Assembly (NCBI GenBank): GCA_963922205.1 | Contig: CAWUHX010000017.1 | Location: 434,001 to 498,000, forward strand | From: Romanomermis culicivorax | Lineage: Eukaryota; Nematoda; Enoplea; Mermithida; Mermithidae | Length of the DNA: 64,000 bases | Direction: 5' to 3' | Shown here: piece after piece, positions 5,932 through 61,550 of the stretch | Position numbering within the stretch: position 1 is the stretch's first letter | Layout: each line of letters begins with the position of its first letter | The notes under the pieces: model-generated | What the model was told of the DNA's origin: nothing | The model's database searches: none | What the model saw: the letters and a program-made list of their open reading frames with translations, nothing else | Position numbers and translations under genes: made by a program

Positions 5932-6835
5932 CAGGGTTTTATTTTTAGGCCAATTGGGAGCGATGGCTCCTGAAAATTCTGATTGGCTCCTAAAAAGCCA
6001 AATTGGCTTGTAGAGAAATTTGAGAATTTTAGTGTAATTTAGGGTAGTTTTCAGCTTCGAATTTCATCGCCACTTCGTGGAATTATCTGTACATGCCTTA
6101 GTAATGCTGTAATTGTGTATATCAGGTGCGTTGCACGAAATGTTAATTCACACAACAATGAGAGCTTCAAGTATCTTAGACATGAAACACTGATTTGATT
6201 TTGATTTTTAAGAGTTCAAAATATCCAAAACTATATTAAACTATTGCGTTCGGTCGAATCAACAAGGTGATGTCGCATGACGCATGTAAAAAAATTATTG
6301 TGCAGACACCAAATAAGTATCAGAAATTCAGAACAGCTAAATGGCAATTGTTGCAAAATAGGTCTAACCTGTCCCCCATAGAATCATGCTAATGCACAAT
6401 GTTTTATTTGCTGTAAAAGCTGAGTTTCTATCAGAACAGCAGAAAAGTTGCATATATTATTATCTAAGCATGTCACTCAATTAAACGAAGAAAAGACAGA
6501 GGAATATGTAGTGCCTCACAATAAGATTGAATATTTTAACTGAAATTGTAATACATATCCATATCATTGATTGAATAATAACTGACCTAATATGTGAGCC
6601 TTATTATTCTCTGTCATCGAAAACATATTCAAAATGCCTAATCTGTTATATGGCCTTCTACTGTAACTTTGAAGCCTGTTTTCGAATGAATTTGTTGAAA
6701 AAACATTTTTTCCTACCACATTCGTTTACAAACATTTTAGTTTTGGCTCATTGAGTTCAAATTCGGATTGGCCAGTAAAATATTGATCCTAGGAGCCAAT
6801 TGGCCTGCAGAGAAAAAATGAAAAATAAAACCCTG
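5932..6835. mobile_element. hAT-like MITE R4a (GAGCCA/TGGCTC words)
   Basis: Starts CAGGGTTTTATTTTT and ends AAAATAAAACCCTG, flanked by 8-bp duplications GGCCTATT and GTCCTATT (7 of 8 identical). Both ends contain repeated words GAGCCA/TGGCTC. A degenerate GC palindrome lies near the left end (ATCGCCACTTCGTGG). Its left half is shared with 49757-50088. No coding region. It is inserted in the Penelope-like remnant, so it is younger than that remnant. Confidence 0.8.
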
Positions 6836-7454
6836 GTCCTATTTCAATGCTTTTTGTTCCTACATTGCTGGAACCTGCTACTTCCATTTCAATGGTCTCC
6901 CTAATTTTTCTCTTGAAGTTGTTGTCGATCAGAGTTTGGCCTACACCCACACTTTAGACAATACTCTGCCACTCCACTTCTTTCATCATTCAGGTTCTTC
7001 AATGCATTTCTATGTTCTGAGACTCTAGTCTGGAGTATTCTAGCCGTTTCTCCTATGTAGACTTTTGCACATGGTTCCATGGTGATGGTATAAACTACTC
7101 CCTAACTTTCCTGCTTGTCTCTTGTTGGGGCTACCTTGCTCAGATGTTTCCTCAGGGTATCCCTAGATGTTGCAACTAGTCTGATCTTATACTGCTTGCA
7201 TATTCTCTTGGGTTTCTGTGTCATCTGACCACTGTATGCTACCATAGCAGTACACTTACACTCAGTGTCTTCCGTATTAGACTTTTTCACAGCCAGTCTT
7301 TTGGATTAAGTTTTTGGAGTATTCATTCCACTGAAAGGCGGTTTTGATGTTTTTTAAACTCATTTTTGTACTCCTGTTCATTGAAGCATGTACTTTTGGC
7401 CCTTATGAGCATACTTTTTACTATTCCTATCTGAGTATAAGTGTATATACAGCT

Positions 7455-7612
7455 ATTGTATCATACAGTGGTCAGGTGACACAGAAACTCAAGAGAATAT
7501 GCAAGCAGTATAAGATCAGACTAGTTGCAACATCTATAGATATCCTGAGGAAACACCTGAGCAAGGTAGCCCCAACGAGAGACAAGCAGGAAAGTCAAGG
7601 AGTAGTCTATTC
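7455..7612 (+). pseudogene. Second, inverted Penelope linker fragment
   Basis: This stretch is the near-perfect reverse complement of 7106-7255 and encodes the same linker on the plus strand (SGQVTQKLKRICKQYKIR, then TSIDILRKHLSKV, KQESQGVVYS). It keeps the glutamine codon where the other copy has a stop. Together the two pieces form an inverted repeat with a 200-bp centre, either from two insertions or one foldback rearrangement. Confidence 0.65.
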
Positions 7613-7689
7613 CAGAGCACCCCTTGGGAGGGTATGGGGGGGTATTACCCCGGTCTTAGATTTGGAAATTCATCTACTACCCCGGTAAA

Positions 7690-9474: not shown

Positions 9475-9657
9475 CATACCTGTAATTGGGGAGGGGGTTG
9501 GGGGACCCTCCCCCCCCCAACTTGGCCAACCATATACCCAACCCCCCCCCCCCGTTTGGAAAAAATTTGCCAAAAAGTGTATGTTTTTTGGTCTTTTTTG
9601 GGAAAAATTTCGACTTTTTTCGACCCCCCCCAACTGGTCGGACCTCTTACAGGTATG
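9475..9657. mobile_element. CATACCTGTA MITE, copy 1
   Basis: Bounded by CATACCTGTA and TACAGGTATG and by perfect 8-bp target duplications AAAGTTTC (9467-9474, 9658-9665). G- and C-runs flank a core with CCAAAAAGTGTATGTTTTTTGG, shared by all copies. It sits about 40 bp beyond the 5' splice site of LIN9 exon 3. Proline- or glycine-rich open frames across it are by-products of the C and G runs. Confidence 0.9.
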
Positions 9658-14357: not shown

Positions 14358-14449
14358 AAAGAAGATAATGAAAATAGAAGTAACTGTGGAACAAATTGCT
14401 ACTAGTATAGAAATGTTAAAGAATTAATTTTTGTGTTTTCTTTGAAGAT

Positions 14450-16615: not shown

Positions 16616-17699
16616 CAGTGTTTCTTTTTTGTGCCAAAACATGGTTTTTGGCACAAAAAAATTTGGAATAGCACAAAAAATTTTGAGTGTTTGTGCCAAT
16701 TAGCAAAAATTTTTTTGCTGGTCAAACATTAAATTTCCTTGATTTTTAGACGTTTTAGGGGCTGAAAATGCAAAAAATTTTCGGCGCTTCGCGCCGAATC
16801 AATGAATATAATATTTCCTATTTGTATATTTGACCGGAACGCAAACGATTTCTTTTCGAACAGTGTATAAGTATCGTTGCAGCAAACTTTGTAGGCTGTC
16901 AAGACTGATGAGTGAAAAAAAATTCTGAATATTCTCTCCTCATTCAGTCAGATTCGGATTTAAAACTGAAATTCTTACTTTTTGTGTTTGATTGATTCAA
17001 AAAGAAAAATCGATATCGTTGATAATGGTACAATGTTTCGATCGAAAATTAACACTCCTTGCGACTTTATTTTCTCTATTCTTTACATGGTTGTTAAATA
17101 TACATAACATGGATATTCGTTCGTAGCATACCTGTAAGACCTCCGACCAGTTGGGGGGGGGGGGAAATCCGAAATTTGGGGGGGGGGGTAGGAAAAAGTA
17201 GAAATTTTTCCCAAAAAAGGTCAAAAAACATACACTTTTTGGCAAATTTTTTCAATTTTTTCCCAACTGGAGGGGGGGGTTGGGGGGGGGGGGGGGTAAA
17301 TGATTTTGGGTACTGGGTTGGCCAAGTTGGGGGGGGGGGTCCCCCCCAAGTACAGGTATGGTTCGTAGTCGAAAATTGAATAAAGTTGAACTTCCTGAAC
17401 AATTTTAGAGCTGTTTAAATTGTCTCAGCATTCCATTTCTTTTTGGGATTTCGTGAACTATTTTGTTGCACAGTTTTTTCTTTTCCCACTGACATGGTTA
17501 GCTGAAAAATACGTTGGGCACGATTTTTACAAAAAATTAATGCGTTAAACGTTAACTTTTTATCAAACTTTAGGCCTAAAACTTTTCCACAGTTTTCAGT
17601 AATGTCTCTAGTACAAAAAATTTTTTTGTGCCATTGGCACTAATTTTTTTGGCCAATTGTGCCAATTGGCACAAATGTCCGTGCACAAAAAAAACGCTG
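16616..17699. mobile_element. hAT-like MITE R3a (TTGGCACAA words)
   Basis: Starts CAGTGTTTCTTTTTTGTGCC and ends GTGCACAAAAAAAACGCTG. Perfect 8-bp duplications CCCTCCTC lie at 16608-16615 and 17700-17707. Words GTGCCAAAA, TTTGGCAC and GTGCCAATTGGCAC recur at both ends. The palindrome TCGGCGCTTCGCGCCGA is at 16781-16797. A CATACCTGTA MITE (17127-17360) is inserted in it. Sister copies: 59275 (left half) and 63309. Confidence 0.9.
17127..17360. mobile_element. CATACCTGTA MITE, copy 2
   Basis: CATACCTGTA ... TACAGGTATG with perfect duplications GTTCGTAG (17119-17126, 17361-17368). Inserted inside R3a. Long G runs give glycine-rich shadow frames on both strands. Confidence 0.92.
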
Positions 17700-18644: not shown

Positions 18645-19563
18645 CAGTGACACCGTTTTTTCCCTCAAATGGGGTCTTTTGCACCGTTTTTTTTTTCCTC
18701 AAATGGGGTCTTTTGAGGAAAAAAATTTCGAAATGAGGAAAAAAATTTTGGGTATGGTTCTCATTGTGGAGAAATTTTTGGGGAATTCAAAACTGAAAAG
18801 ATGCGTTTTGGTGGACTTAAAAGGGTCAAAATCTCAAAATTTTCCGGCGCGCGCCGGTCATGGGTATAATCTTAACTATTTTCTATCAGGCGCGGCCGTT
18901 AGCATATCTACTTCAACTTACTAATTAATGCTTCACAGTTTCTATCAATTAAGTTGACTCGTTTCATTTTCTAATCGTTAGCAGTCAATTATGTCGCCCA
19001 AAATTGAGATTTCTCATCAATTCTCTCGATGCTTGGAATTTTTTCAACGTTTGTAACCTTAACTTTTGCGTTTAGTGAAGATGAAAATTGAAGACATCAT
19101 TCTAGACTGCGATTTTAGAACTTCTGCTCATGAATATCTGTTGGGGAAATTTATTTTCCAGAGTTTTAGAAAGCGAAAATCCAAAAATTTTTCCGGCGCT
19201 CCGCGCCGGACTGAGAACTAAATAAAATTAGATGATTCGAATCGGAACCACAGAAATGTTAATAGCGGATTTAGTCCTGAGAACTCTATCGTTAACATGC
19301 TTCACCCGTTCCTGTAGAACACCAATATTTTTTTCATGAGCTCATATTGACTAACAGAACCAGAATTTTCTCAATTTTTTCCTCATTTTTGCAGGTTTCT
19401 GACTCCAAATACAACGAAATGCTTGGATATGCGCCTAAAATGCATAAAAAATCATCCGTAGCCACATTATAAACGTTTTTAAAAATGAGAAAAATTTTGG
19501 GAAAATGAGAAAAAAAATTGTGGGTCCGGTTCTCATGTGGAAAAAATCTTCGAGGAAAAAAAA
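18645..19563. mobile_element. R1-family element, copy 1 (TGAGGAAA words)
   Basis: Left edge CAGTGACACCGTTTTTT, then repeats of CCTCAAATGGGGTC/TGAGGAAAAA; right edge with AATGAGAAAAA words and ...GAGGAAAAAAAAACGGT. Palindromes CCGGCGCGCGCCGG (18844-18857) and CCGGCGCTCCGCGCCGG (19193-19209) sit in the left and right parts. It lacks a clear right-hand duplication, so the right edge is approximate. It lies directly upstream of LIN9 exon 1. Confidence 0.65.
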
Positions 19564-20082
19564 ACGGTAGTCTTTTGGAGAAAAAAATTTCGAAATGAGA
19601 AAAAAATTTTTAGGTATGGTTCTCATTGTGGAAAAAATTTTGGAGAATTCAAAACCGAAAAGACGCTTTTTGGTAGACTTCAAAAAGTCAGAATCTCAAA
19701 ATTTTCCGGCGCTTCGCGACGTTTTCATGCCTATAATCACTCAGTGCTTTTTCAGGGTTGGCAAGGTTTTGGTTTTTGGTTTATTTGGTTTTTTGAGAAA
19801 AGCAAAAAATTGGAAAATCTCTGGTTTTTGTTTTTTTCCAAAGTCACTGGGAAACTTTTTTAACATTATTCGATCTTCTAGGCTATATTGGAGTCTATCT
19901 AAATCAACAAAACCATTAATTTAGTTGAACTGACTTCACTACAATGTAGAAAAAAGTCGTATTTTTATGATACATTTCGCACACAAAAAATGTATATAAA
20001 TCAATCGATATTCTATGTTTCCATAATGCAAGCGCACATTTCGTACATGAAACGAGTTTGCTATAGTTTCTTCACAAACAAA

Positions 20083-24439: not shown

Positions 24440-25545
24440 CATAGTTTTTTTTAGCATTTTACAAGCCATGGCTTGTTGGACTGACAAAATGGCTTGTAGA
24501 ATTTTTGTCTAACAAGCCAAAATGGCTTGTCAGAATTTTTTGAGTCATGTGTTTGATCATATCGGATACAGAAAAGATGCATTTTCGTGCATTTTAGATG
24601 GTCATAATCTCAAAATTTTCCGGCGCTTCGCGCCGGTTATGACTTAAATAGGCATTATTATTTATTTCCTCTTCAGGCGCTGCTTCTAACATGTCTACCT
24701 TCACTTATCATTTAATCTTTAATAGTTTTAATCATCTTAAACGTATTATCTCATGTTTTAATTGGTAATCTTCAATATTTCATCTTGATATTTAATGAAG
24801 ATTCACATTTTTCCCTTGATACACTTTTTGAGAAAGATCAATACGTCAAGTCTGTAAACTTTTTGAAGCGATTATTCCTTTCTTAATGTAAAATCAATTC
24901 AAAAGCTTCATGGAAGTAGTTTTCGGAAATTTCTACTCTTCTTACTCATATCTTTTTGGCCAAGTTCATGAGAGTGTGAGAATAAATTAATGATTTTAAA
25001 ATTTTTCAAACATAAAATTCTAGAAATTACAACTTTTGAACAGAAAATTTGAATCTAATTCTTCAAATAAGTGTTTGAAAAATTGATTTTCCAGCATCGC
25101 AGAATGTCAATACCCAAAAAAATTTTCAGGCGTTTCAGACAGGAAAGATTAATAGCTTTTTTGAGCTCTCACTTGTCATCATAGAGGATTTAACCGCCGA
25201 TTTCTCGTGTAATTCAAAGTTATTATGTTCTTGGATAGTTTGCTGGAAAATTTGTTCCACAATGCTTGTAGATTCGACTTCGATCAAACTCAAAAATTTC
25301 AAATGTTTCCAGAATTTTAATGAATTAACGGCTCTAAAATGTCATTGAATAAATGTTGAATGACATCTCTTTTTTGATCGATTGCCATTATGCTCAATAC
25401 ATTTCTTTAAAAAATAACCTAGCATTGGAATTGATTCACATATACTGATATTATAAAATTGGCTTGTAAAAATTTGGAATGGCTTGTAGAATTTTAGGTC
25501 AACAAGCCACTTGGCTTGTGACTCGTAGGTCAAAAAAAACCCCTG
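24440..25545. mobile_element. hAT-like MITE R2a (TGGCTTGT words)
   Basis: Starts CATAGTTTTTTTTAGC and ends CAAAAAAAACCCCTG with perfect duplications GTGACTAT (24432-24439, 25546-25553). Words ACAAGCCA/TGGCTTGT occur about four times at each end. Palindrome CCGGCGCTTCGCGCCGG at 24620-24636; the right-hand counterpart near 25129 is decayed. Body shared with the elements at 30415, 37619, 43764 and 60358. Confidence 0.92.
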
Positions 25546-29590: not shown

Positions 29591-31655
29591 GGTAAAGTGG
29601 GGTGACTTTGATCAGAGTATGGCATTTGATAACTAATTGAGATCAATAGGTCATTTTTGATGTGTAGACATAGACAACCTCACAGCAGAGATTGATACGA
29701 CCTGCTTTTTCAGCAGGTTGTTCCAATGTGCTATTGTAAGCACATTGTCCTTCAATCTTATATCATCAATGATGATATATGGTCCTTGCTGAGGTAACCC
29801 CAGTTTTTTCTGTCCGTGGACTTTCAACAGAACCCAATCTTGGTTTCTAAAAACCAGAAGTCTTAATTTTGCTATGAAAATGTTTCTTGCTGTCCTTAGC
29901 GGCTTCTGGTATGTTTTCGACTATACTTTCGTACAAATTTGTAAGATGGGTAGCCAAAACATACTTGTAAGCCTTGTAGTCATTTGGCATGACTATTTTA
30001 AGGGCAGCAGTGAAATAGATACCAAGATTAGCATCATACCCCCACAGCAGTGAAAATAGTGAAAATTTTGTTGCTGCGTTGGGTGTGGCATCATATGCAA
30101 ATACCCCTGCACTGAGGTACCTTGGCCATTTGTTATCTTCAATTCCAACTTTTCGCAGCTCTTTATTAGAGTTTGGTTAAATCTCTCAACTGTACCATTA
30201 CCCTGTGGGTGGTATGCAGTTGTGAAAATTTTTCTGCACTCTTAACAGTTTACATACTGCTTTCAAGATCTGAATTATATCCAGATCCTTTATCACTAAG
30301 CAGTTTTCTTAAAGTACCATGCCTAAATATCACATGCTCTAAGAATGCATCCACTAAAGTATCAGGAATCAATATAGCTTCAACCCATTTAGTGAAATAT
30401 TCCTGAAAGATAATCAGTGTTTTTTTCGCACTGTGCAAAATTTTTTCTGCTGGTGCAAAACTTTTTCTCAGTTTTTTTGCACCGTGCAAAAAAATTTTTA
30501 TTTCTGGAAAAAAATTTGGTGTTTTCATATGGAAAAGATACATTTTGGTGCATTTTAGTAGACCCAAATTTCAAAATTAAAAAAAATTATCGCCTTGGTT
30601 ATAACTTTAATAATCATCATTTTTTATTGTCAAGCTCAGGGGCGACTTTTAGCATGTCTACCTTCACTTATCACTATTTTTTAATAGTTGTCATCGTTTT
30701 AAACATATTATTTCATGTCTAATTGGCGATCTTCAATTATCATTATATTTAATGGAGGAAGATCCCCATTTCTCCTTCATACATTTTTTGAGAAAGATCA
30801 ACACATCAACTTGGTGCATATTAGAAGGTAATAATGTCAGAACTTTAATAATCATTATTATGTATGTATTACATATCTCAGACGCGGCTTTTAGAATGTC
30901 TACCTTCACCTATCATGTAATGTATAATAGTTTTCATCATCCCAAACGTATTATCTCATGTACAAAAAAACCTGTTTATAGTACAAAAAATTTTTTGGCA
31001 TGCAAAACTTTTTTGGTGATTTTTTTGCACTGTGCAAAAGAGCTCATGCAAAAAAACACTAAAGACAATGACATATGGGCAACGTTCCCTCAAGGGAGCA
31101 ATCCCTACATGTCCAGAGAGACAATATCCAAGGGTCCCTCTGGTTTAATGGGGATATGGAGATTTTACTGCGAGTAGCCACTTGGCAGACAGGGCAAAAC
31201 TTCATCCAATTTCTGATATCCTTTTCAATGCCAGGCCACCAGCACTGCTGTTTGACAACACTCAGTTCTTTCGAACCCTTGGTGTGTCATTATAACAGCT
31301 CTGTGGTATTGATGAAGAATGATGTCTCTAAGGGAATTTGGGACCATGATCTGATCATGGCCATGTCCCTCAGTTTCCCTATAAGGAACTCTGTTATCCT
31401 CATAGAATCCATTATGATACTTTGTGGTGCTTTTGACACCTAATCTTTCCCATATAGGTTTAAGATTAGTGTCTTTTTTTGGAATTGATATATAACCTTT
31501 AAATCTATTGGATAATTGGCCTTATCATCATCCCTCTCGTCATTCCCTCCTTCTTCCACCTCTTCAAACTCCTTTTCTCTATTCCGGAAAAGCCGAGCAA
31601 TATTTTCAACATCAATTAGTACTGATGTACCTGGTTCTTGATTTACTGTGCTCTG
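29591..31655 (-). pseudogene. Ty3/gypsy-like integrase region, decayed
   Basis: Minus-strand pieces in order: around 31360-31090 the integrase zinc-binding module (HQ-F-RT, then CWWPGIEKDIRNWMKFCPVC); after the MITE at 30415-31061, the catalytic core start (FQEYFTKWVEAILIPD) and a LLSDKGSGYNSDL stretch where the second catalytic Asp is expected; then GNGTVERFNQTL and a trailing domain to about 29640. Frameshifts and stops are frequent. No LTRs, gag or RT were recognised. Integrase normally joins retroelement cDNA to host DNA; this copy cannot. Removing the MITE brings the two halves back together. Confidence 0.78.
30415..31061. mobile_element. hAT-like MITE R2b (GTGCAAAA words)
   Basis: Starts CAGTGTTTTTTTTCGCACTG and ends CATGCAAAAAAACACT(A), flanked by AAGATAAT (30407-30414) and AAGACAAT (31062-31069), 7 of 8. 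Words GTGCAAAA/TTTTGCAC recur at both ends. It has the left part of the R2 body twice (CGGCTTTTAGCATGTCTACCTTCAC near 30650 and again near 30890), so it is rearranged. Inserted in the integrase relic. Confidence 0.85.
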
Positions 31656-37162: not shown

Positions 37163-39018
37163 AGTTAATTAGAAAATGCACCCGATGGGGCAGAAAAAAA
37201 ATAATATACTTGCTTGGATAGTTGCCAAGCTAGAAAAAAACGTAGACGGTATTTTTCAGAACTTGGGTGAGAGCCTGAAAAATGCCATTTTGTAATATTA
37301 GATTTCATTCTTTCTCACCAAAAAGATTTTCCATATCTGTGAAAAAGTATATTCTGTAGCTGACTGCATCAACACAGTTTCCAACTAAATGTGCGGCTCC
37401 AAAAATTCGAGGAGGTACGGGGGGCGGACCCTGTAGTTTTAGCGTTTTTTGAGATAAAAATCTAAAAATTATATTGCATATAATCTTCAGTCAGATCAGA
37501 AAAATTCCACTGTAGTCGATGCCATGTTCGAGAAAGGACAAAAGCTTTTTCACAGACATGAAAAAATTTTAATGAGAAAGAATGAAAATCCAATATTACA
37601 AAATTAGGTTACTCTCACCAGTTTTTTTTCTGCACAGTGCAGACTTTTTAGGCTTCGTGCAGAATTTTTTTGTGATTCCTGCACTGGTGCAGAATTTTTT
37701 GAGTCATGTGTTTGATTACATATATTCTTCTAAAATGTGTCAGTCATTGATTCTGAACTTTAAAACTCAATTATTTTTCTTATTTCAAGACTTTAGTCCA
37801 AAAACTATAAAATTTTCAAATTTAACATTGGATAAATTTAATTTGCTTTTTTCCTACATTCACTATTATTGTGTGTAACAGGTACTGTTTTTTTCCAAAA
37901 TCGTGCTCTTTGGAGAAGAATTCGCAAAATTCGCAAAAGTTCGAATTCACAAAAGGGGAAAATATTTTGGACTCTTTCCCAATTTGAGGAAGAAAATGTT
38001 GGGGATCGGATACAGAAAAGATCCAATTTAGTGCACTTTAGAAGGTCGTAATTTCAAAATATAACTTTAATAATCATTATTATGTATTACTAGCTCAGAC
38101 GCGGCTTTTAGTATGTCTACCTTCACCTATCATTTAATCCATAATAGTTTTCATCATCTTAAACGTATTATCTCATATTTTAATTGACCATCTTCAATAT
38201 TTTATCTTGATATTTAATAAAGATTCGCATTTTTTCCTCGACACGTTTTTTTAGAAAGATCATACCTTAAACTTTTTGAAGCGATAATTCCTTTCTTAAC
38301 GTAGAATCAATTCAGAAGCTTCATGGAAGTAGTTTTCGGAAATATCCACCCCTCTTACTCATATCTTTTCGGCCAAGTTCATGAGAGTTTACGAATAAAT
38401 TTTTCAAATGATAAAATTCTAGAAATTACGACTTTCGAACACAAAATTCGAATCCAATTCTTGAAAGAAATGTTCGGAAAATTGATTTTTCAGCTTCGTC
38501 GAATGTCAATATCAGAAAATTTTTCCGGTGCTATGCGCCGGAAAGATTAACATATTTTTTGGGCTCTCACTTGTCATCATAGAGGACTTGACCGTCGATA
38601 TCTGATGTAATTCGAAATAATTATGCTCTTCGATAGTTTGCTGGAAAATTCGTTTCACAAGGCTTGTAGATTAGACTTCGATCAAACCCGAAAAAATTTT
38701 TCCTCGATTCTAATGAATTAACGGCTCTAAAAATACCAGAAGGTTTGAAAAAGCTCAAAAATACATAAATAAGGCGTCTATGAGCATTAAGCAATGAAAA
38801 ACGACTCCGGGCAAATAAGATAACATTTTCAACCCCTTTCCCTATTTGGGGAAAAGGCCCTGGTAAAATACCGTGGTAACAGGAGAAAACCGCAGTACAG
38901 AAACTTTTTTTTGGCTTTTCTGCACTGTGCAGAGAGCCGGGCGCAGAAAAACCACTGACACTCACCCAAGTTCTCGAAAATTTAGTCCACCCCTTTTTTG
39001 CTTCATCGGGGCATTTTC
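37163..39018. mobile_element. Foldback element R5 (GAAAATGC-CCCGATGGGG ends)
   Basis: Left end TTAGAAAATGCACCCGATGG and right end CATCGGGGCATTTTCCAC are inverted repeats. The arms continue inward: TGTAATATT-GATTT-CATTCTTTCTC and TCCATATCTGTGAAAAAGT at 37290-37350 are inverted at 37535-37605. The right arm is interrupted by R2c. Related pieces occur at 50088-50275 and, reversed, at 53060-53490. Confidence 0.68.
37619..38957. mobile_element. hAT-like MITE R2c (TGCACAGTGCAG words)
   Basis: Starts CAGTTTTTTTTCTGCACAG and ends CGCAGAAAAACCACTG; flanks ACTCTCAC (37611-37618) and ACACTCAC (38958-38965), 7 of 8. Words CTGCAC/GTGCAG at both ends. Palindrome CCGGTGCTATGCGCCGG at 38525-38541 in the right part. 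Most complete R2 body in the window. Inserted in R5. Confidence 0.88.
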
Positions 39019-40943: not shown

Positions 40944-41047
40944 GTGATGTCTGTTTACTTGGTACATTCACAATGTAATCGATGAATATCGGAACTAGAG
41001 ATGTCCCAGGCTCAAGCGCAGGTGTCATGATATTTAGTACGGGCAGG

Positions 41048-43198: not shown

Positions 43199-43257
43199 GT
43201 GTCAAAAATGAAGTCGAAATGACCTGAACAAGTCATTTGAAGCTTTTTTTGACACCC
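43199..43257. repeat. 58-bp hairpin with GGTGTCAAAAA ends
   Basis: GGTGTCAAAAATGAAG and CTTTTTTTGACACC are inverted, with GAAATGAC/GTCATTT continuing the stem, around a GTTCAGG-type loop. Possibly a very short MITE. Confidence 0.5.
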
Positions 43258-44477
43258 TCGTATAAGATGCCACGGAATTTTCCCTCTATTTCTATGGCCA
43301 CTAGTGCCCAAGACTTTGTGTTAAAATTTAAATCAGATTTGTATACCCTTTTGGGAGTTGTAGATGTCTGCACATCTTGAAAATTGATACAAAGATGCTG
43401 TTTGCTGCCCTTGAATATGTCATCAACGAGATGCAGGAAACATTAAACACGTTCATTGAGATAACTCTTGCGTTTTCCTGTAAAGAAACGTCAGAATGGC
43501 TCAATCTCTCAACCTTTATAAAAAAATTTAAATTTTTTTGACTTTTTGTGTGAAGCATGTCGTTCAGCAAATATCAAAGCTAGATGAATCAAAATTTATC
43601 CAGCTTTGAAGTCACAATTTTTTCTTATTCATTATATGGGTGATGGAAAATCCTGTTTTCTCAGAACTTTTTGGTTGGGAATTCATTCGGATTCAAAAAT
43701 ATAATTGAATGGCAGTGCAATGTGTGCAAAAAAATTTTTGAAATCCTATGGTTTGGTTGAGACCAGGATTTTTTTTTGTACATAAGCTATTTGTTGTATA
43801 CAAACGGTAGCCGATATTTGTACAATTTGTACATAGCAAAAATACGTAAAATAAGTAACCTGTGTTCCTCTACGTCATGACCAAAGACTAATAACCAAAT
43901 CAGTGTAATTTTCAAATTTTATTTATAACTCAAAAATGCCGTTAATTCATTAAAATTGAGAAAAAAATTGAAATTTTCGAGTTTCAAGTCTAATTTACAA
44001 GCATTGTGGAACAAATTTTGTAGAAAACTATCCAGACTTTGCATTGGATGATAAATTGATGGTTAAGTCTTTTATGATGATAAGTGAAAGCTCAAAAAAG
44101 ATGTCAATCTTTCTCGCGCGAAGTGCCGAAAATTTTTTTGTGTATTGACGTTTGGCGACGCTGGAAAATCAATTTTTCAAACATTTAGTTCAAGAATTAG
44201 ATTTGACTTGTGTGTTCAAAAGTACTTCAGAATTTTATCATCTGAAAAATTATGAAAACAGTAATTCATACCTGGGCAATGGCGGGCCACCCGAGCCTCC
44301 GGGTAGCCACGTTTTTGGGTTCGGTAGCTACGTTGGCGGCTGTCGGTGGCTCCAGAAATTCAACACTTTATAGAGCAGAGAGAAAAAGAAAGGAAAAGGG
44401 GGAAAAAAGAGAAGAGCAGACAAATCAAAAAGTAGAGAAGAAAGAAAAAAAGAGCAGCGGAGGCAAAGAAATAAAGT

Positions 44478-45664
44478 CAGCCAACCAACTAACCAACTGA
44501 TCTGTAAGGAACCAACCGATTTTAGAAACAACCAATCAACTGATCTGGAGAGAAACCAATCGATTTGTGAGTCAACCAACCAACTGATCTGGGAAGCAAC
44601 CAACCAACTGATTCGGAAGCAACCAACCAACCGATTTGGGAAACAACCAAACAAATGATCAGGGAACCATCCAGCAAGTTCTGTAAGCAATCAACCAAAT
44701 GATTTGGAAAGCAACCAACCAACTGGTCTGGGAAGCAACCAACCAACCGATTTGGGAAACAACCAACCAACTGATCAGGGAACCATCCAACAAATTCGGG
44801 AAGCAATCAACCAAATGATCTGGAAAGCAACCAATAAACTAACCTGGGAAACGACCAAGCAACCAGCTATTCTGGGAGTCAACTAACTATAACTGATCTG
44901 CGGAGCAACCGACCAATTTGAAAAAAACCACCCAACTTATCGGGACAGCAAACAACTAACTAATCTGAGAAACAACAGACCAAGTGATCTGGAAAGCAAC
45001 CAGCCAACCGGTCTGGGAAGCAACCAATAAACTGACCTGGGAAGCGATCAATCAATTTAGGAAATAACCAACAAAGTGATAGCTAACCAAACTGGGAACC
45101 AACCAATTGATCTGGAAGGCAACCAGCTGACTGATCTGAGAGGCAACTAACCAATTTGGAAAAAACCAACCAACTTATTGGGAAAGCAACCAACCAATCT
45201 GGGAAACAACAGACCAATTGATCTGGGAAGCAATCAATAGCGGAGCAACCTGTCGTATGCCCAAATCCACGTGGCCAGCGCGTCAGAAAGCGCTCGGTGG
45301 GGGGCTCGAACCCTCGACCTTCTGCATACAAGGCAGACGGGCTACCAACTGCGCCAACCAAGTCACGTGGATATTTCGGAAATTGTGGTTGTAGTGGTGG
45401 TGGTGAGTGTGGGGCATGCCACGTAAAGAATAGCCAGACGCACCACTACAACAAACCAATCAATTTGGGAAACAATCAACCAAGTGATCTGGAAAGCAAC
45501 CAGCAAGAAAGGAACCAATCACCTGATATATAAGAAGCAACCCACAAATCTAAGAAACATCCAGCCAACAAATCCAGGAATCAACAAACCAACCAACTGA
45601 TCTGGGATGCAACCAACTGGTATGTGAAACTACCAACCAACTGATCTGGGAAGCAAACGACCAA
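44478..45664. repeat. Minisatellite of about 24-bp units (AACCAACCAACTGATCTGGG)
   Basis: Dozens of imperfect units of the form CAACCAACTGATCTGGGAAG. It is interrupted at 45245-45451 by the tRNA-like segment; outlying units occur at 46690-46890. Translations give NQPTDLG repeats on plus and W/F-rich repeats on minus; frames do not persist across indels, so this is not a gene. Confidence 0.85.
45292..45363 (-). tRNA. tRNA-Thr(UGU)-like gene or tRNA-derived SINE head
   Basis: Minus strand: ACTTGGT acceptor strand pairs with ACCGAGC at six of seven positions including one G-U; A-box TGGCGCAGTTGG; anticodon arm TCTGC-CTTGTAT-GCAGA gives anticodon UGU; T-arm GAGGG-TTCGAGC-CCCCC with one mismatch. 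The D-stem is imperfect (GCGC against GCCC) and the D-loop is short. It sits in a 207-bp insert (45245-45451) inside a minisatellite, flanked by CCACGTGG/CCACGTGA, so a SINE-type origin is as likely as a functional gene. Confidence 0.55.
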
Positions 45665-45731
45665 TTTATTGTCGGGGATGGACATAGTCTATCTCCAGGT
45701 TGCGAAGAAATAGCCAAAGTCGACGCAAATT

Positions 45732-46156
45732 CATACATGTAATTGGGGGGGAAGTGCTATGGGAACCCCCCCCCCCAGGAATCGTCGACCATATGGCTAG
45801 CCATTGGGCGACCGCCCCCCCCCCAGGATTTTCCAATCCTATGGCTAGCCATATGGTAGCCCTAGGGACCCCCATAGTTTTAGTCGGAAAAATACTGAAA
45901 AATGTCAATTTTTGAACAAAAAATGGTCAAAAACGTCAATTTTCTCGGCGCTTCACGCCATAAGTACATATTTTATCATTTTTTAGACAAAAATTACTAC
46001 TTTTTAAACCGTTTTCGGACATTTTTCATGGAAAAAATCGAATTTTTTTTCCTTCAGGGACCCCTCCCCCCAAAATTTTGGGAATTACTGACCCCCGGCC
46101 CCAAAAAAGTGCTCCAACCCCCCCCCCCCAGACCTCGGAGCTCCGTTACATGTATG
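45732..46156. mobile_element. CATACATGTA MITE, copy A
   Basis: CATACATGTAATTGGGG ... CCGTTACATGTATG, with perfect duplications CGCAAATT (45724-45731, 46157-46164). Internal words ATGGCTAGCCAT, plus the GC palindrome variant TCGGCGCTTCACGCCA at 45945-45960 in the middle. Open frames through it come from C/G runs. Confidence 0.93.
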
Positions 46157-46892
46157 CGCAAATTGTGTCGATGCCGATTTGCATAGACACCGTGCATAAA
46201 AGTGCCGGTTGTCTATGTTTTTGGTCGTTTGTGATTTGTTGTTTATTTTTATATTAAAAGAAATCGGCGGCCACCAGGCCATATATTTATAATAATATTT
46301 GTATTATTATTTTGTGGAGTTTGCGCCAAAATACAAGGTCCCTCGACCGGACATTTATTGGACATCTCACAGCGGAGGGAACGCAGGTTAGAATCCGGAT
46401 TTCTGTAGTGCCACCCACCGTGCAAGTCTACATTTGCAACTTAATTCTCGGTCTGACTTCTAGGTTTGTTGCTGATTGGAAGTTACTTGAGATCAGAGAG
46501 TTGTTTGATCTTCTGCAGTTCTTTGGAACGAAAGCAGGTGATCTTTGTTGACTTTGAGACTGACCGAACTGTTGCAAACTTATTCTACCTAAGGTTCCGG
46601 CCTGATTAGGTGAATTAGCTAGTAACTGATTAGGTCTATTTTTGATACCAATTCTTTTATTACATTTCTCAATCTAACTCCAAGTCTCATTTCAACATTA
46701 TGAAACAACCAATCAATCTAGGAGTCAAACAACTAACCAACTGGTCAATGAAGCAAGCAGAAAGCTTAAGAAACAGTCACAGGGTCAACCGAAAAAAAAT
46801 TGGGTAGGACCAAGCAATTCGAGAGTTGAACTTGACAAACAGCCAATAAAGCCAACCAGGGAAAAAACAACAAACCAATCATGGAGTCAGCA

Positions 46893-47640
46893 ACCTTAAA
46901 AATGCTCATAAACGCTTTATTTATGTGTTTTTGAGCTTTCTCAAACCTTCTGGTGTTTTAAGAGCCGTTAATCCATTAAAATTGAGGAAAAATTTAAATT
47001 TTCGAGTTTGATCGAAGTCTAATCTACAAGCATTGTGGAACAAATTTTCATGCAAACTATCCAAGAGCATAATTACTTTGAATTACATGAGAAATTGACG
47101 GTTATCCAAGTTCTCTATGATGAAAAATGAGAACGCCAAAAAAGTTAATGTTTCCAGCGTGAAGCGCCAGAAAAGTTTTTTGGGTGCGACGCTGAAAAAT
47201 AAATTTTCCGAACATTTATTTCAAGAATTAGATTATTTAAAAATTAAAAAAAAATTATTCAAAAAATTTGAAAACCAGTAATTTATTCGAAAACTTCCAC
47301 GAACTTGGCTGAAAAGATTTGATGAGTAAATTCATTATGGGGTCTGAAAAATTTTCCGATGCTGCGCGCTGGAAACAAGGTTATGCCGGCAGTAGAAAAT
47401 TGGAATTATTGCGCTTTAGATTGTTGTTGATTTTGCTGTATTCAGCGCCATCTGACCTAAAATTCAAGATCTTTACTTTCGCCCTTAATTTACACAAATT
47501 ACTGACTAAGGGAAGAATAGAATGCAAAACATGCTGGAAAGTGTGCATATAAAAGATCATTGAGCATTTTAGAGTGGAAAAGCATTTATGAAAAATATTG
47601 AAACAACCTTTTTGAAAAATAACAACCAATCTAAATAAAT
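46893..47640. repeat. R2 body fragment R2e, reversed, inside element Y
   Basis: Matches the reversed R2 body (GCTCATAAACGC, TTTTTGAGCTTTCTCAAACCTTCTGG, then ...CCAGTAATTTATTCG...GAACTTGGC). Palindromes CCAGCGTGAAGCGCCAG (47154-47170) and CCGATGCTGCGCGCTGG (47356-47372). It duplicates sequence also present in the surrounding R2d. Confidence 0.65.
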
Positions 47641-49756
47641 TTGGCTTGGGTAGCTACGTACAAAATTTGCTTTGCCCAGGTATGCAGTAACTTATTCGTT
47701 TACTCGCATGAACTTGGCCGGAAAGATATGAGTGGAAGAGTAGAAATTTCCGAAGGCTACTTCCATGAAGCTTCCGAACTGATTTTATGTTAAGAAAGGA
47801 ATAATCGCTTCGAAAAGTTTAGAGACTTTGACGTATTGATCTTCCTCAAAAAGTGTTTCAAGGAAAAACTACGAATCTTCATCAAATATCAAGATAAAAT
47901 ATTGATTACCACTTAAAACATGAGATAATACGTTTGAGATGATGAAAACTATTATACATTAAATGATAGGTGAAGGTAGACATTCTGAAAGTTGCATCTG
48001 AGCTGGGTAATACATAATGATTATTAAAGTATAAAGTATATTAAAGTATAAGTAAAGTATAGTAAAAAATTATAAAATTTTGAGATTGTGAACTTCTAAA
48101 ATGAATATTTTCTATACCTTATCCCCAAAATTGTCTTCCCTAAATGGTAAAGGGCCGTTTGTACACGTACAAATGACTACTCCAATTTCGTTTTCCCCAA
48201 AAAATTTTCATTTGCTTCCGGCGAAAAAAACACTGGTTGAGACACAATAAACCGATTCGAGTTTCGTGAAATATTAGTGAGTAAGCATCTCTATAATTTA
48301 ATTCGTTGGGTGTTGCAGATTTTAAATCTAAGTCAGTCTCAAGATGATCTAAACAATTAAGTGTTGATTTTTTACTTATTATATTTCATTAGTTAATTGA
48401 TGTGTCATCACATTCTTTAACATGGGTATTTGTTTTCAGCTGAATTACTATGTTATATATCAGACCCGAATCAGAATTGTGACAATTTTGTCGAGTCCGG
48501 GTCCAAAATTTTAAAAATTTCTGGTCCGGGTCTAAAATTTTGAGAATATCGGGTCCGGGTCCAACAAATTAGTCGGGTAATTTCGGGTCTCATTTCGGGT
48601 CCGGGTACCCGATACATCTTTATTTTCTATTAGGCGCATCCGTTAGCTCATGTACTTCCACTTACTATCCAATGTTCAACAGTTTCTTTCAGTCAAGTTT
48701 GCTCGTCTCATTTTGTTATCGTTTACAGTCAATTTTCATCAATTCTCTCAATTTTTTCTCTTGGGGCTTGGAATATTTCGAACGTTGTTTGAGAATATTA
48801 AAACTCGAAGGAACAAATTACACTCTATTTATTCCTTATGGTTGTGGAAGTTCATTTCCCAGCGTTTCAGGAAGTGAAAATCCGAAAATTTTACCGGCAC
48901 TCTGCGCCACACTAAGAAATGAATACAATTGTATAATTCTAATCGGATTTGATTGACCCGACTAGAAATTTCCCAATTTTTTCCTCATTTTTGTAGGCTA
49001 CTGACTAGAAAAGTATCAGAATGCTTGGGTCCGTGGCCACATTATAATCGTTTTCAGAGATTTAGAAAATGAGGGAAAACATTTTGGGTTCGGTTCTCAT
49101 GTGGAAAAAACTTCGAGGAAAATAAAATTGTGTTACGATCGTGTGTGCTTTATACATGTCGATTTTCCCCGGTACATATGTCTTTAGCAATTCTATGTAG
49201 GAATTAGTGTGAGTTTTCACTCTGAAAAAATCTGGAATATTCTGGGAAATTGACCTGGAAAAGTCAGGGAATTTTATTTTGGGAAACTGATTGACACCCT
49301 GTTATCAACATTTTAAGGCATTGATCAACTTGATTCTGACATCAAGGCAATCACTTTTTCTACTTTTGACTAAACTCCATTCATTTTGAAATGATCGATG
49401 ATGCGAGGTGTCGCCCAATTTTTTAATCAAAATTAGGGAAGAATCGTTCCAAGATTATCGAAATTGATTTCGTGATCTGTAGCAATGCTGCGTTTGCCAA
49501 AACTCCTATCATTTCAAAATCGAGTATCCAGTCGATTGAGCACATGCCGGTTTCTTGGCTGGTTCATCATGAATTATGTTCATACTTCTCGATGTTATAG
49601 CAGTAGTAGTTCGGCCTTCTACTCACATATTTTCCAAGAATAAATCAATGTGAAACAGAGTCTGTTTGTGATAACCTTTGAAGAATTCAATGCGGCTATA
49701 GGGTACAATTAACTGGGAGTAAGATTTCCTTGACTACACTCTTCATCACTTCCAAA

Positions 49757-50485: not shown

Positions 50486-50929
50486 CAGCGTTTTTTTTTC
50501 TGCTCGGTCCATTTGTACTGGTACAAACGACCTCTCAAAAACCGTTTGTACTCCAAAATTTGCGAAAAATTGTTAAAAAGAGCATTCATTGTTATAAAAC
50601 GCAACAAACATGCTGTGAAATACGTTGGCTATTTTCACGAGACACATAGGAAGGCTATGAATTCAGACACATAAAACACTTGATCATGAGACACAGAACA
50701 TGCACTAGTGAAATACTCCACAAAAAGCTTTTATTATGCTATAGCTACTAGTACGTCGTTATCGATGGGGACGCATAAAAAACAAGTCCATTATTGATAC
50801 TGATGGCTCTTGAGTGACATAAAATTTTTTTGTCCTAAAAATTTTGTTTGTACCAGTACAAACGAAGCCGAAATTCTCGTTTGTACTCTGGACCATTCCG
50901 TTTGTAAAGTACAAATAAAAAAACACTGG
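50486..50929. mobile_element. hAT-like MITE (TTTGTACTGGTACAAA words)
   Basis: Starts CAGCGTTTTTTTTTCTGC and ends CAAATAAAAAAACACTG; flanks GGTTGCAC (50478-50485) and GGTCGCAC (50930-50937), 7 of 8. Words TTTGTAC, TGGTACAAACG and CGTTTGTAC repeat several times at both ends. Confidence 0.85.
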
Positions 50930-57910: not shown

Positions 57911-59266
57911 ATGTGATGCCCAAATTTATTCTTAATAAAAAATACCATTATTTTCCATAATAAAAAGCAAGGATTATAAAGAACATGAATATGTAAATGG
58001 CTAAAAAAGTTATCACCCATCTTTTACATTTCGGAACTTCCACAATTTCATACGGAGCCTTAGATTCTTCATACAATTATCGGTCAACTGACATATAAAA
58101 TCAACCAAATAGTCTCAAAAATACAGACACGAACACAATTTGAAAATACCTCTATCTCATCACAGAATATTTAATTGTCTTCTATGATTTTGGATTATAT
58201 TCTGTCCAACATGGCTGCCTGAAAAAAATTTTACATTCAATCAACACTTACTTCTAAATTATATATCCATTAACTTGATCATCACAATTTTGTCAGTTCC
58301 AAGCATCAGAAGCCTATCTGTAAACAAGAAAAAAAACTGATCTGATTAAGAATGCACTCATCTAATCTTCACAAACTTATTACCAGGCTGGGAAAATGTG
58401 ATGATGTTTCAGTCTGCTAACAATAAAAAATAAGTAAAATGTCAGATAGAAAAATTCGATTTTAATAAATTTGATCCAAGCAACTGAATCGAACTTGAAC
58501 TGAAAACATGCAATTAATAACATAACTGGACTGATCAATGTCCACTAGCAAGCAAGAACTTTTGCAGTTCACAGCCTTCCCGGCTTTCTTTATTCCTGTC
58601 TTCTTGGCAGTTTTTGGGGTGGATTCAAGTACTTAATGACTATACCTATGGAGTAAAAATGATACTCTATTTATTTTCGAGACTTATTACCTATTTGTTT
58701 ACAACTTTTTATCAGAAACGATGCCGACTTTGCTCTGTATTGAACACGATATCCAATTCGTCATGAGCTCACGATAAAATTTGAAATACAAACATTACGC
58801 GAATATAAGAAACCTGAAAAACAAGAATCTGGAATTAATTTTTAACACAAAGACCTTCTGCACAAGTAATCCTGCTACTCCAAAAGTTCAAAAAATGCAT
58901 CAACCAAAAAAATTCTGTAACAGCAAAGCATCTCAGCATTTTGGAATGTGTCTGGATCACAGAGAACTGAGCATTACTTGTATGCAGAAATTGTCAAATT
59001 GATGCTTGCCTGACCAAATTGTTTTTGTTTTTTTTGGATCAAAAATACCACATAATGCTTTATTATGCTTTTTCAAGTTTGTTTGAACATTCTGATGCTT
59101 CTGCAGTCAGTAAATAATTCACCAGAAAATGAAGAAAAACCGCCAGATTATACAAGAATATATGGATCAAACAAAATTAGCATTAATAAAAAGCAGCAAA
59201 AAAACGATCAAAAATATCTAAGTTGCCTAGGATTTGACTAAAGGATGACACTTGGAAAATTTTCAG
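57911..59266. other. No gene or element recognised
   Basis: AT-rich; open frame 58781-59002 (73 codons) without a known motif. Nothing else supported. Confidence 0.35.
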
Positions 59267-60357
59267 GTCTTGATCAGTGCTTTTAGTGCCGAAATATGGT
59301 TTTTGACCAAAATTTAGAATAGCACAATTTTTTTTAGCATTTTTATCAATTGGCACAAATTTTTGGGGTGGTCAAAAGCCAAATTACATAGATTTTTACA
59401 CATTTTAGGGGCTGAAAATGCAAAACTTTCTCAGCAGTACATGCTGAGTCAATGAGCGTAATATTTACTGCTCTTATTCAGGCTGAAGGCGAGCAAAGTT
59501 TCATCAAATAATATACTAATAATATTGTAGCAAACTTATCTTCAATGATTGATGAATGAATAGAAATTCTAAACTTTGTCTGTCAATTCAGTGGGATTGG
59601 GCACTGAAATTGCTACTTCGGATGTTTGATTGAAATTGAAAGTTTACATTGTCAGCATAATTTTTCAACTGAAAATTTATGCAACTTTGGAATTCATATT
59701 TTCCAGAAGCACTCTCTTTTCCACTTGTTCAGAATCACTCTTTTTTCCACTCGTTTTCTTGAATTTCATTCGAATCGCGTCAGTTAGGCTTTTAACAGTC
59801 AATTTTCTGAGATTTAAAGGGAAAATAAAAACCTTGGTATGATTAACTTGTTCGGCACCTAGCGCCAAAAATTTTTCTAGGATTTTGATATTCTAGATTG
59901 CTGGAAAATGAATCTTTTCAACTTTTATTTCCAAGACAGAAGGTTTAATTTTTCAGCCAATTCAATGAATTTTCAGTCAGACAGACAACAATTCAAAAAT
60001 CACTTAGAGGAAAGCAACTGCGAATTTCGATTCTTCAATCAGCAAGAATTTCTACTCGGACTCAAAATGTCCTAATCACACAAATGTCAAAATGTTTTAA
60101 CGATCACAAAAAATTTTCGAGGAAAATGACCGAGAACAATCTTGCTTTTCGTTAAATTCACCAAAAAACAACACAGGATTAAACATTTATCCATATGTTG
60201 ATTATTAAAAGCTATGAGCATTAGCTAGAACGACATATTGTAACCGCGCACTGGAATAATATAGAAAATATATTAAATAATTGAAACTGGCACCAAGCGC
60301 CAGAAACCCTATAACCTAATCAAAAGGGCAGTCAGGCTTCAAGTTGCACTGTGCAAC

Positions 60358-61550
60358 CACTGTTTTTTCCACATTTGCACTATAATGTGGAAGAAAAATC
60401 TGGGATGTGAAAAAATTTTTTGAGGTCTTTCCACAAATGTGGAAGAAAGATTTGGGTTTTCATACTGAAAAGATGCATTTTGGTGCATTTTAGGAGGTCC
60501 AAATCTCAAAACTTCAATAATCATCATGATTTATTAAGTAGCTCATGTGCGGCTTTTATCATGTCTACCTTCATTTATCACTTAATCTTTAATAGTTTTC
60601 ATCATCTTAAACGTATTATCTCATGTTTAAATTGGTAATCTTCAATATTTTATCATGATATTTAATGAAGATTCACATTTTTTCCTTTTGAGAAAGATCG
60701 ATACGTCAAGTCTCTATGCTTTTTGTTTTGATGTGATTATTTCTTTGCTAACATAGAATCAATTCAAAAGCATACCTGTACTTGGGGGGTTACTTGGCCA
60801 ACCCAGTACCGAAAATCATTCCCCCCCCCCCCAGTTGGGAAAAAATTAAAAAAATTTGCCAAAAAGTGTATGTTTTTTGGCCTTTTTTGGGAAAAATTTC
60901 GACTTTTTCCTACCCCAACCCCAAAATTTCGGATTTACCCCCCCCCCCCCAACTGGTCGGAGGTCTTACAGGTATGTTCAAAAGCTTCATGGAAATATCT
61001 TTCCGAAATTTATACTCTTCTAACTCATATATTTTCGACCAAGTTCATGGGAATTTACAAATAAATTACAGATTTTAAAATTTTTCAAGTAAAATTCTAG
61101 AAATTACGACTTTTGAACACAAAATTGGAATCTAATTCTTGAAATAAATGTTCGGAAAATTGATTTTCCAGCGTCCCAAAATGTCACGCTTTGCGCCGGA
61201 AAGATTACCATATTTTTTGGGCTTTCACTTGTCATACTTGACCATCGATTTCTCATGTGAGTCAAAGTCAATTATGCTCTTGAATAGTTTGCTAGAAAAT
61301 TCGTTCCACAATGCTTGTAGATTAGGCTTTAAAGCCGAACATTTCAATTTTTTCTTCAATTTTAATGGATTAACTTCGCTAAAAACACCGGAAGGTTTGA
61401 AAAAGCTCAAAAATAGTGCGATAAAGCGTCTGTGAGCATATTTTAACGAAAAAACGAGGATTTTGAGACGAAAAAAATTTTTTCCACATGTGCAAAAAAA
61501 ATTTTAAATCTTTACACATTTGTGAACAGAAGTTCGTGGAAAAAACAGTG
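60358..61550. mobile_element. hAT-like MITE R2f (CCACATTTGTGG words)
   Basis: Starts CACTGTTTTTTCCAC and ends GTGGAAAAAACAGTG; flanks TGTGCAAC (60350-60357) and GGTGCAAC (61551-61558), 7 of 8. Words CCACATTTG/CAAATGTGG at both ends. The R2 body is shared with R2a and R2c; a decayed right palindrome (CACGCTTTGCGCCGG) lies near 61184. The uninterrupted target reads at 28910-28940. Contains a CATACCTGTA MITE. Confidence 0.9.
60771..60976. mobile_element. CATACCTGTA MITE, copy 5
   Basis: CATACCTGTACTTGGG ... CTTACAGGTATG with perfect duplications TTCAAAAG (60763-60770, 60977-60984); the joined flanks restore AATTCAAAAGCTTCATGG, as at 24892 in R2a. Confidence 0.94.

What the first reader, a model, noticed from the sequence alone, without database searches (positions are those of the whole stretch)
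5932..61550. MITEs with a shared body but interchangeable terminal 'words'
At least five R2 elements (24440, 30415, 37619, 43764, 60358) have recognisably the same body and 8-bp duplications, yet their ends hold arrays of different self-complementary words: TGGCTTGT, GTGCAAAA, CTGCAC/GTGCAG, TTTGTACA, CCACATTTG. R1 copies likewise differ (TGAGGAAA against CCTGGAAA). R3 and R3' use TTGGCACAA and GTTGCAC. Within one element both ends always use the same word. In hAT elements such subterminal repeats are transposase binding sites, so the pattern suggests one body lineage repeatedly re-addressed to different transposases, with both ends changed together. A mechanism that homogenises both ends (fold-back gene conversion or template switching) would be needed.
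Basis: partly seen in the sequence, partly recalled or inferred. Interest (0 to 1): 0.85.

Follow-up and report, generated by a model that had tools for sequence, protein, structure and literature searches.

The report
MITE bodies that changed end addresses
Short non-coding jumping-gene relatives in this animal genome carry one recognisable middle under several different pairs of matching ends, and the sequence indicates that the middle was carried into new ends by one element landing inside another, so both ends change at once.

Summary
The window holds hAT-like MITEs with 8-bp target duplications (9 found; simulation mean 0.05), and a real R2 body (alignments up to 779 bp) occurs under different terminal words. 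Ends of one element match each other.

(1) End exchange is real but needs no homogenising mechanism. Element 37619 is a CTGCAC-ended MITE (R5) with a nearly complete CCCC-type R2 element nested in it, flanked by exact 8-bp duplications; 75 empty R5 sites exist. The composite lost an internal piece and amplified. Its body, with the same chimeric junction, also sits in TGGCTTGT ends (element 24440). A predicted TGGCTTGT MITE with a different interior was found. Bodies do not group by word (AU p=0.0004).

(2) Within one end frame the words differ by concerted changes: 563 exact CCAC/CCAC ends against 6 mixed CCAC/CCCC ones. This resembles BED-finger sites in Hermes.

Shared-body, different-ends elements are known from Galileo. 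Matching transposases were not found, and which of 24440-type and its look-alike came first is open. The R1 and R3/R3' examples are not supported.

The parts
24440..25545 (+). E1: TGGCTTGT-ended MITE with R2 body; exact TSD GTGACTAT
   Evidence: 42 genome matches listed, 40 scored of 5137 candidates
24440..24531 (+). E1 5' TIR and TGGCTTGT word array, shared with R6 MITEs that lack the R2 body
   Evidence: 92-95% to L060, L062, L063
24531..24562 (+). E1: R5-derived stretch just inside the array (CAGAATTTTTTGAGTCATGTGTTTGAT)
   Evidence: 94% to 37690-37723; a pattern over it counts 1317 genome matches at <=2 mismatches, control 0
24561..25339 (+). E1: R2 body
25337..25545 (+). E1 3' region and TGGCTTGT array, shared with R6
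   Evidence: 92% to L060:275-487
37619..38957 (+). E3: R5 (CTGCAC) MITE with a nested R2 element; outer TSD ACTCTCAC/ACACTCAC
37883..38875 (+). inner R2 element (CCCC-type ends, decayed) nested in R5
   Evidence: aligns with positions 36-984 of the 998-bp element L036:24-1021, 78%
37875..37882 (+). TSD of inner element, GTAACAGG (5' copy)
   Evidence: same letters beside the inner 5' TIR in L042 and the inner 3' TIR in L043 and L048
38876..38883 (+). TSD of inner element, GTAACAGG (3' copy)
   Evidence: 75 empty sites genome-wide, 58 of them with GTAACAGG
43764..48235 (-). E4: GTACAAA-ended element with R2 body pieces (46957-48034 and 43939-44263, minus strand) and other insertions; exact TSD GTTGAGAC
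30415..31061 (+). E2: GTGCAAAA-ended element with partial, duplicated R2 body; TSD AAGATAAT/AAGACAAT
60358..61550 (+). E6: CCAC-word R2 element (frame like that of CCCC elements), inserted into an R3' word array; TSD TGTGCAAC/GGTGCAAC
18682..19569 (+). R1 element, CCTC words in the same end frame; exact TSD GTCTTTTG; lies inside another R1 array (by eye)
16616..17699 (+). R3 element, GTGCC words in the same end frame; exact TSD CCCTCCTC
50486..50928 (+). GTACAAA-ended MITE without an R2 body (recipient-type for E4 ends); TSD GGTTGCAC/GGTCGCAC
5932..6835 (+). R4 element, TGGCTCC words, no R2 body; TSD GGCCTATT/GTCCTATT
34291..35336 (+). R4-type element, GGCTCC words; TSD GCCATGTG/TCCATGTG

Best explanation
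These are hAT-type MITEs whose ends act as addresses. Right after the TIR sits an AT-rich frame with palindromic words in fixed slots. By analogy with Hermes, the frame reflects transpososome geometry and the word is the binding site of a transposase BED finger (inferred). Two processes change the address. (1) End capture: an element lands inside another MITE; the composite moves with the outer pair of ends, internal deletion removes much of the old material, and the body amplifies under the new address. Shown: CCCC-type R2 nested in CTGCAC-ended R5, internal deletion and amplification, and the same body with the same junction in TGGCTTGT ends. How the last step happened (nested insertion plus deletions, or template switching during gap repair) is not resolved. 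Both ends change together because they are the two ends of one recipient. (2) Word drift: inside one frame the slots carry the same variant (CCCC or CCAC; CCTC in R1), presumably because only elements whose slots match the current transposase move (inferred).
For: Nested insertion: inner element flanked by GTAACAGG twice in E3, inner 5' TIR with GTAACAGG in L042, inner 3' TIR with it in L043 and L048. 75 empty R5 sites genome-wide, control 0, of which 58 hold GTAACAGG. Composite amplified: 5 copies that keep the stretch 104-386 (E3, L042, L043, L044, L046; L044 and L046 with further insertions) and, by my count of the table, 14 copies in which query 1-103 abuts query 387 onward. E1 has the same 103|387 junction. 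Body tree: all CTGCAC-ended bodies together without E1, p-AU 0.0004; the deleted CTGCAC set together without E1, 0.036; E1 plus the deleted set together costs nothing (p-AU 0.55). Predicted TGGCTTGT MITE with another interior: 18 genome matches, 13 reading ...TGGCTTGTCGTTT; L060 and L061 read end to end; an R6 copy with exact TSD CCCAGCCC. L062 shows the 5' part of a CTGCAC element inside an R6 interior. Old-end relics inside the new arrays of E2 and E4. Drift: TTTTCCNCAAATGNGGAAA, 1850 matches, control 0; of the 100 rows listed 56 A/T, 38 C/G, 6 not complementary. Slot 1 with slot 2, exact: 563 CCAC/CCAC, 1 CCAC/CCCC, 5 CCCC/CCAC. Frame shared by R1, R2 and R3: 2826 matches, control 12. Hermes: palindromic STRs at rigid positions bound by BED domains (passages).
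Against: The direction R6 -> E1 is not resolved: end identities are E1-E1 96.7%, R6-R6 94.7%, E1-R6 94.6%, and the end tree is weakly supported and puts R6 among E1 rows; R6 could be an E1 whose interior was replaced. L060 and L061 have no TSD that my scan could find. The body tree is small (19 rows) with several backbone supports below 70; L056 is poorly aligned. In the best tree CCCC, CCAC and E4 bodies fall among the composites, which a single nesting event does not predict; a single origin is not rejected, but fits worse (p-AU 0.09). The 30 E1 loci were chosen by similarity to E1 with its ends, so 'all carry TGGCTTGT' is biased. No recipient was found for E2's GTGCAAAA ends. L062 pairs a CTGCAC 5' end with a GTACAAA 3' end, a possible exception to matched ends. 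No transposase was tied to any R1-R6 word. Matched text for the two-slot pattern was shown for only 22 of 2576 matches, and CCCC/CCCC was not counted on its own.
Confidence: 0.78

Rival explanations
1. In-place homogenisation: fold-back gene conversion or template switching between the two ends rewrites all words of an element.
For: Both ends and the slots agree. For CCCC against CCAC the frame stays and mainly the word differs, which conversion could also give.
Against: CTGCAC, GTACAAA, GTGCAAAA and TGGCTTGT ends lie outside stretches that belong to other ends, and E1's 3' region shares about 210 bp with R6, not just words. MITEs with CTGCAC, GTACAAA and TGGCTTGT ends but no R2 body exist. 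Exact mixed CCAC/CCCC ends are rare: 6 against 563.
Confidence: 0.1
2. For E1 alone: gap repair after excision of a TGGCTTGT element copied its two ends, switched template into a CTGCAC-ended R2 element and back, replacing about 157 bp of interior by about 800 bp (SDSA or microhomology template switching).
For: Clean internal replacement with no TIR of the CTGCAC element left at either side; the 3' junction shares about 4 bases (TAAA), judged by eye. Gap filling with microhomology is described for Pack-TIRs (passages of PMC8277862).
Against: A nested piece of a CTGCAC element inside an R6 interior exists (L062), so insertion followed by two deletions also works.
Confidence: 0.4
3. Reverse order for the last step: E1 is the older element and R6 is an E1 whose R2 body was replaced by another interior; the TGGCTTGT ends then reached the R2 body from a source not seen here.
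For: E1 is far commoner than R6 (1317 matches to the junction pattern, against 13 of 18, under different mismatch rules); the end tree does not place R6 outside E1.
Against: R6 copies are slightly more diverse in their ends (94.7% against 96.7%) and the interiors of L060 and L061 are only 76% alike, as expected of an older element. In either order ends and interior were exchanged.
Confidence: 0.25
4. Plain vertical divergence: each word family is an old lineage, words track body phylogeny and nothing was exchanged.
For: Fits CCCC against CCAC: the two well-aligned CCAC bodies group next to the CCCC body (supports 100 and 100, 73 and 65).
Against: Rejected for CTGCAC and TGGCTTGT (p-AU 0.0004; 0.0005); shared chimeric junction; nested TSDs.
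Confidence: 0.05

Closest known systems
Galileo (P superfamily), Drosophila mojavensis; PMC3573991 (passages, section 8 read)
   Same: The same central region is found with TIRs of three subfamilies (D, E, X); exchange between copies is thought to found new subfamilies.
   Different: Long TIRs, 7-bp TSDs, exchange ascribed to ectopic recombination or conversion; here 8-bp TSD hAT-like MITEs, with one step directly shown as a nested insertion with TSD and empty sites.
MER6 composite MITE, mammals; PMC6887750 (passages)
   Same: An element inserted in a MITE and the composite diversified under the outer ends.
   Different: The insert was a SINE, in a different type of MITE (the passage shown begins 'Tc1/'); here a MITE body is found under at least three end types.
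AgaP2-P12MITE, Anopheles; PMC1562414 (passages)
   Same: A MITE combining parts of two subfamilies.
   Different: Its two ends differ from each other; here they match.
Hermes hAT transposon STRs; PMC10368747 (passages)
   Same: Palindromic subterminal repeats at fixed distance from the TIR, AT-rich context.
   Different: Binding was measured there, in one family; here only sequence, many words in one genome.
Pack-TIR gap filling; PMC8277862 (passages)
   Same: Interior of a TIR element filled through template switching at microhomology.
   Different: There non-TE sequence is captured; here another MITE's body.

Membership tests
hAT superfamily (as MITEs) | 8-bp target site duplication | tested here: met
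   9 elements with <=1 mismatch, simulation mean 0.05; exact 8 bp in 16616, 18682, 24440, 43764-48235 and the inner element of E3
hAT superfamily (as MITEs) | short TIR of CAGTG-like form | tested here: met
   CACTGTTTTTT, CAGTGTTTTTT, CAGGGTTTTA at the ends; that this form is typical of hAT is recalled
hAT superfamily (as MITEs) | subterminal repeats in fixed frames, matched between ends | tested here: met
hAT superfamily (as MITEs) | a cognate hAT transposase with the same ends | tested here: inconclusive
   150 hATC hits scored of 1837 candidates, 8 of these places read (L049-L056), none with R1-R6 ends that I could tie to it. L049, L052 and L054 carry GGATCCGGATC words as in the window hAT relic 13790-15390
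hAT superfamily (as MITEs) | mobilised by that transposase | not testable with these tools
   needs an excision assay
Composite (nested) MITE | inner element with its own TSD inside the outer one, empty outer sites, amplification as a unit | tested here: met
Galileo-type end/body exchange | same central region under several end types, ends matched | tested here: met
   mechanism and superfamily differ
Galileo family itself | 7-bp TSD and long TIRs (P-type transposase not looked for) | tested here: not met
   TSD is 8 bp and the TIR is short

The most novel reading that the evidence does not exclude
The MITE ends form a modular address system: one frame set by transpososome geometry holds a palindromic word in which a single base (CCNC with N = C, A or T) decides which transposase family moves the element. 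Bodies pass from address to address through nested capture, so non-autonomous elements outlive the loss of any one transposase by changing address.
Probability: 0.3. Interest if true: 0.8.

Novelty: new variant of a known kind. Interest (0 to 1): 0.6.

Why it matters
How non-autonomous elements stay mobile over long times, and how both ends of a transposon can change specificity together, are open questions. Here one genome keeps steps side by side: the empty outer element, the nested composite, the deletion derivative that amplified, and the same body under a further set of ends. It also offers a natural series of near-identical word variants in one fixed frame, which makes transposase-to-site matching directly testable. 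It cautions against classifying MITE families by body or by ends alone.

Tried and rejected
Own first idea that E3 is an R2 with swapped words: rejected by the TSD and empty site. Idea that the ends of E1 came directly from R4 (TGGCTCC) elements: the frames resemble each other (71% over 84 bp), but the closer match is R6. Idea that the TGGCTTGT word is tied to a hAT transposase through L063: its ORF looked hATC-like by eye, but it lies in a further nested element (by eye) and Pfam gave no family at E<=1; note entry 10 states the earlier, wrong reading. hAT coding loci L050, L051, L053, L055 and L056 showed no end that I could tie to R1-R6 words; L056 merely holds a CCAC R2 element nearby. R3 against R3' and R1 'CCTGGAAA' as swap examples: not supported. 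Rows dropped: L026b and E2 were in the first body tree and left out of the AU tests as short; one E1 row (L019b) was also left out and L056 added. Only 6 of 31 available E1 bodies were used there.

Not in print: I did not find concerted word change in fixed hAT end frames, nor one body under several end types in hAT MITEs, in nine full-text searches; the library holds only open-licence PMC papers, and most hits were seen as listings only.


Full report
WHERE IT IS. The window is part of contig C17 of a 359-Mb, 595-contig genome. It carries pieces of animal-type genes: LIN9_C and DIRP domains (4079-4864 and 12720-13103, minus), which together suggest LIN9 (recalled), and a MYND finger with a below-cut-off PDCD2_C hit (40336-40944, plus). 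The species was not determined.

OBSERVATION. A scan for TIR pairs with an 8-bp duplication found 9 elements in the window against a mean of 0.05 (maximum 2) in 100 simulations. Left and right ends of one element share far more 6-mers than ends of different elements (256 against 106, 0 of 100,000 permutations; 11 elements). The R1 and R3/R3' examples do not hold.

FIRST END CHANGE, SHOWN. L036:24-1021 is a clean R2 element with CCCC words and exact TSD CTCGGGCC. Element 37619 contains positions 36-984 of this 998-bp element, decayed ends included. The inner copy is flanked by GTAACAGG on both sides, and the outer CTGCAC element (R5) occurs without it in L021, where the site reads GCAACAGG. L042 keeps the inner 5' TIR next to GTAACAGG, L043 and L048 the 3' TIR. 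A pattern for the empty R5 site gives 75 copies, L021 among them, and no control match; 58 of the 75 hold GTAACAGG. So the CTGCAC ends of this R2 body come from nesting.

COMPOSITE BECOMES A FAMILY. Searching with E3 (40 scored of 7288 candidates) gives 5 copies that keep the stretch 104-386 (E3, L042, L043, and with further insertions L044 and L046; the 3' R5 end of L046 was not matched), and, by my count of the table, 14 copies in which E3 1-103 abuts E3 387 onward within 0-7 bp, that is, the composite minus 104-386. This deleted composite is called F_CTG here.

SECOND END CHANGE. Element 24440 (E1) belongs to a high-copy family (40 scored of 5137 candidates). All 30 loci fetched by that search, one of them the window copy, carry TGGCTTGT on both sides; they were chosen by similarity to E1 with its ends, so this is biased. 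E1 has the same 103|387 junction as F_CTG, and a pattern over the R5-derived stretch counts 1317 matches, control 0. On the body tree E1 sits with F_CTG L047 and L048, F_CTG L045 being next (supports 87 and 80; 96 and 90). Forcing all CTGCAC-ended bodies together without E1 is rejected (p-AU 0.0004; 0.0005); forcing F_CTG together without E1 gives p-AU 0.036; E1 plus F_CTG as one group fits as well as the best tree (p-AU 0.55), and composites, F_CTG and E1 as one group, the single-origin case, is not rejected but fits worse (p-AU 0.09) (19 rows in each). So the TGGCTTGT ends were not inherited with the body.

PREDICTION AND TEST. If E1 received its ends from another element, MITEs with the same array and a different interior might exist. 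A pattern for the E1 5' array not followed by the E1 interior gave 18 genome matches, 13 of them reading TGGCTTGTCGTTT. Four of the 13 were read. L060 and L061 are about 458 bp, with E1's array at 5', an unrelated interior of about 157 bp, and E1's 3' region of about 210 bp (92% for L060); my scan found no TSD for them. A third (L063+L064) has an exact TSD CCCAGCCC and a further insertion. The fourth, L062, has the 5' part of a CTGCAC element inside its interior, the kind of intermediate expected. Which of R6 and E1 is older is open: end identities are 96.7% within E1 (36 pairs), 94.7% within R6 (3 pairs) and 94.6% between (27 pairs), and the end tree does not separate them.

OTHER END CHANGES. 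E4 (GTACAAA) keeps a piece matching positions 55-144 of the L036 element inside its array, and E2 (GTGCAAAA) one starting at position 72. Both look like new ends outside old ones. A GTACAAA MITE without R2 body lies at 50486-50928. No recipient was found for E2's ends.

WORD DRIFT IN ONE FRAME. R1, R2 and R3 share the frame T6-W-AAA-N7-TTTT-W'-A6TTT, with W' the reverse complement of W: a scan of the fetched sequence gave 7 rows, 6 of them complementary, with CCCCC, GTGCC and CCTC. The frame occurs 2826 times in the genome against 12 control matches, and by eye the 100 rows shown are mostly GTGCC and CCTC. In a 3' slot, TTTTCCNCAAATGNGGAAA occurs 1850 times (control 0); in the 100 rows shown, 56 are A/T, 38 C/G and 6 not complementary. 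With two slots in one pattern, matched text was shown for 22 of 2576 matches and all 22 agree, 16 CCAC and 6 CCCC. Exact counts are 563 CCAC/CCAC, 1 CCAC/CCCC and 5 CCCC/CCAC; CCCC/CCCC was not counted by itself. E6 and L056 carry CCAC at both their ends. On the body tree the two well-aligned CCAC bodies group beside the CCCC body (supports 100 and 100, 73 and 65), so here word follows body; L056, also CCAC, is poorly aligned and falls elsewhere. The spacers also differ between CCAC and CCCC copies, so these are two families, not scattered point variants.

HOW IT PROBABLY WORKS. In Hermes, BED domains bind a palindromic pair of subterminal repeats and a third one at rigid distances from the TIR, in AT-rich context (passages of PMC10368747). 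The anatomy here fits: fixed slots, AT-rich frame, palindromic words. That the word is the binding site of a matching transposase is inferred. Only elements whose slots fit will move, which alone keeps both ends alike. Nested capture gives a body a new matched pair of ends in one event; deletion then trims old material. In-place homogenisation is not needed for the large word changes and is not excluded for the one-base drift.

AGAINST KNOWN SYSTEMS. Galileo has one central region under TIRs of three subfamilies (section 8 of PMC3573991), so the general pattern is known. MER6 is a composite MITE that diversified after an insertion (passages of PMC6887750). Possibly new here are the hAT-type setting, the direct record of nesting with empty sites, serial end change of one body, and concerted word variants in one frame. 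I found no report of the last two in nine searches of open papers.

Noticed in passing
13790-15390: hAT-type relic with GGATCCGGATC words and hATC coding (14446-14769, PF05699), itself carrying a nested insertion; coding relatives L049, L052, L054 have the same words downstream of their hATC domain.
   Followed up: partly
42755-48618: Stretch with GGGTCC words at both sides (CGGGTCCGGGTCC) splitting an R1 copy and containing E4; its words differ from GGATCC by one base, perhaps another drift pair.
   Followed up: no
60358, 18682, L021:1501: Three MITEs are inserted inside the word array of another MITE (TSDs TGTGCAAC/GGTGCAAC, GTCTTTTG, CTTCATGC); arrays may be preferred targets.
   Followed up: no
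L062:195-601: Apparent element with a CTGCAC 5' end and a GTACAAA 3' end: possible exception to matched ends.
   Followed up: partly
9475-9631, 17124-17349, 22684-22890, 60768-60976: A separate repeat family rich in G or C runs (GACCAGTTGGGGGG); one copy lies inside the E6 body.
   Followed up: no
44486-45670: Degenerate tandem array of CAACCAACCAACTGATCTGG-like units inside E4.
   Followed up: no
53820-54496: Tandem array reported with periods of 98 and 195 bp.
   Followed up: no
L055:838-3429: 864-aa open hAT transposase frame (PF14291, PF05699); the hATC table lists a second 864-aa frame on contig C77 with a similar score (59.2 against 58.9 bits).
   Followed up: partly
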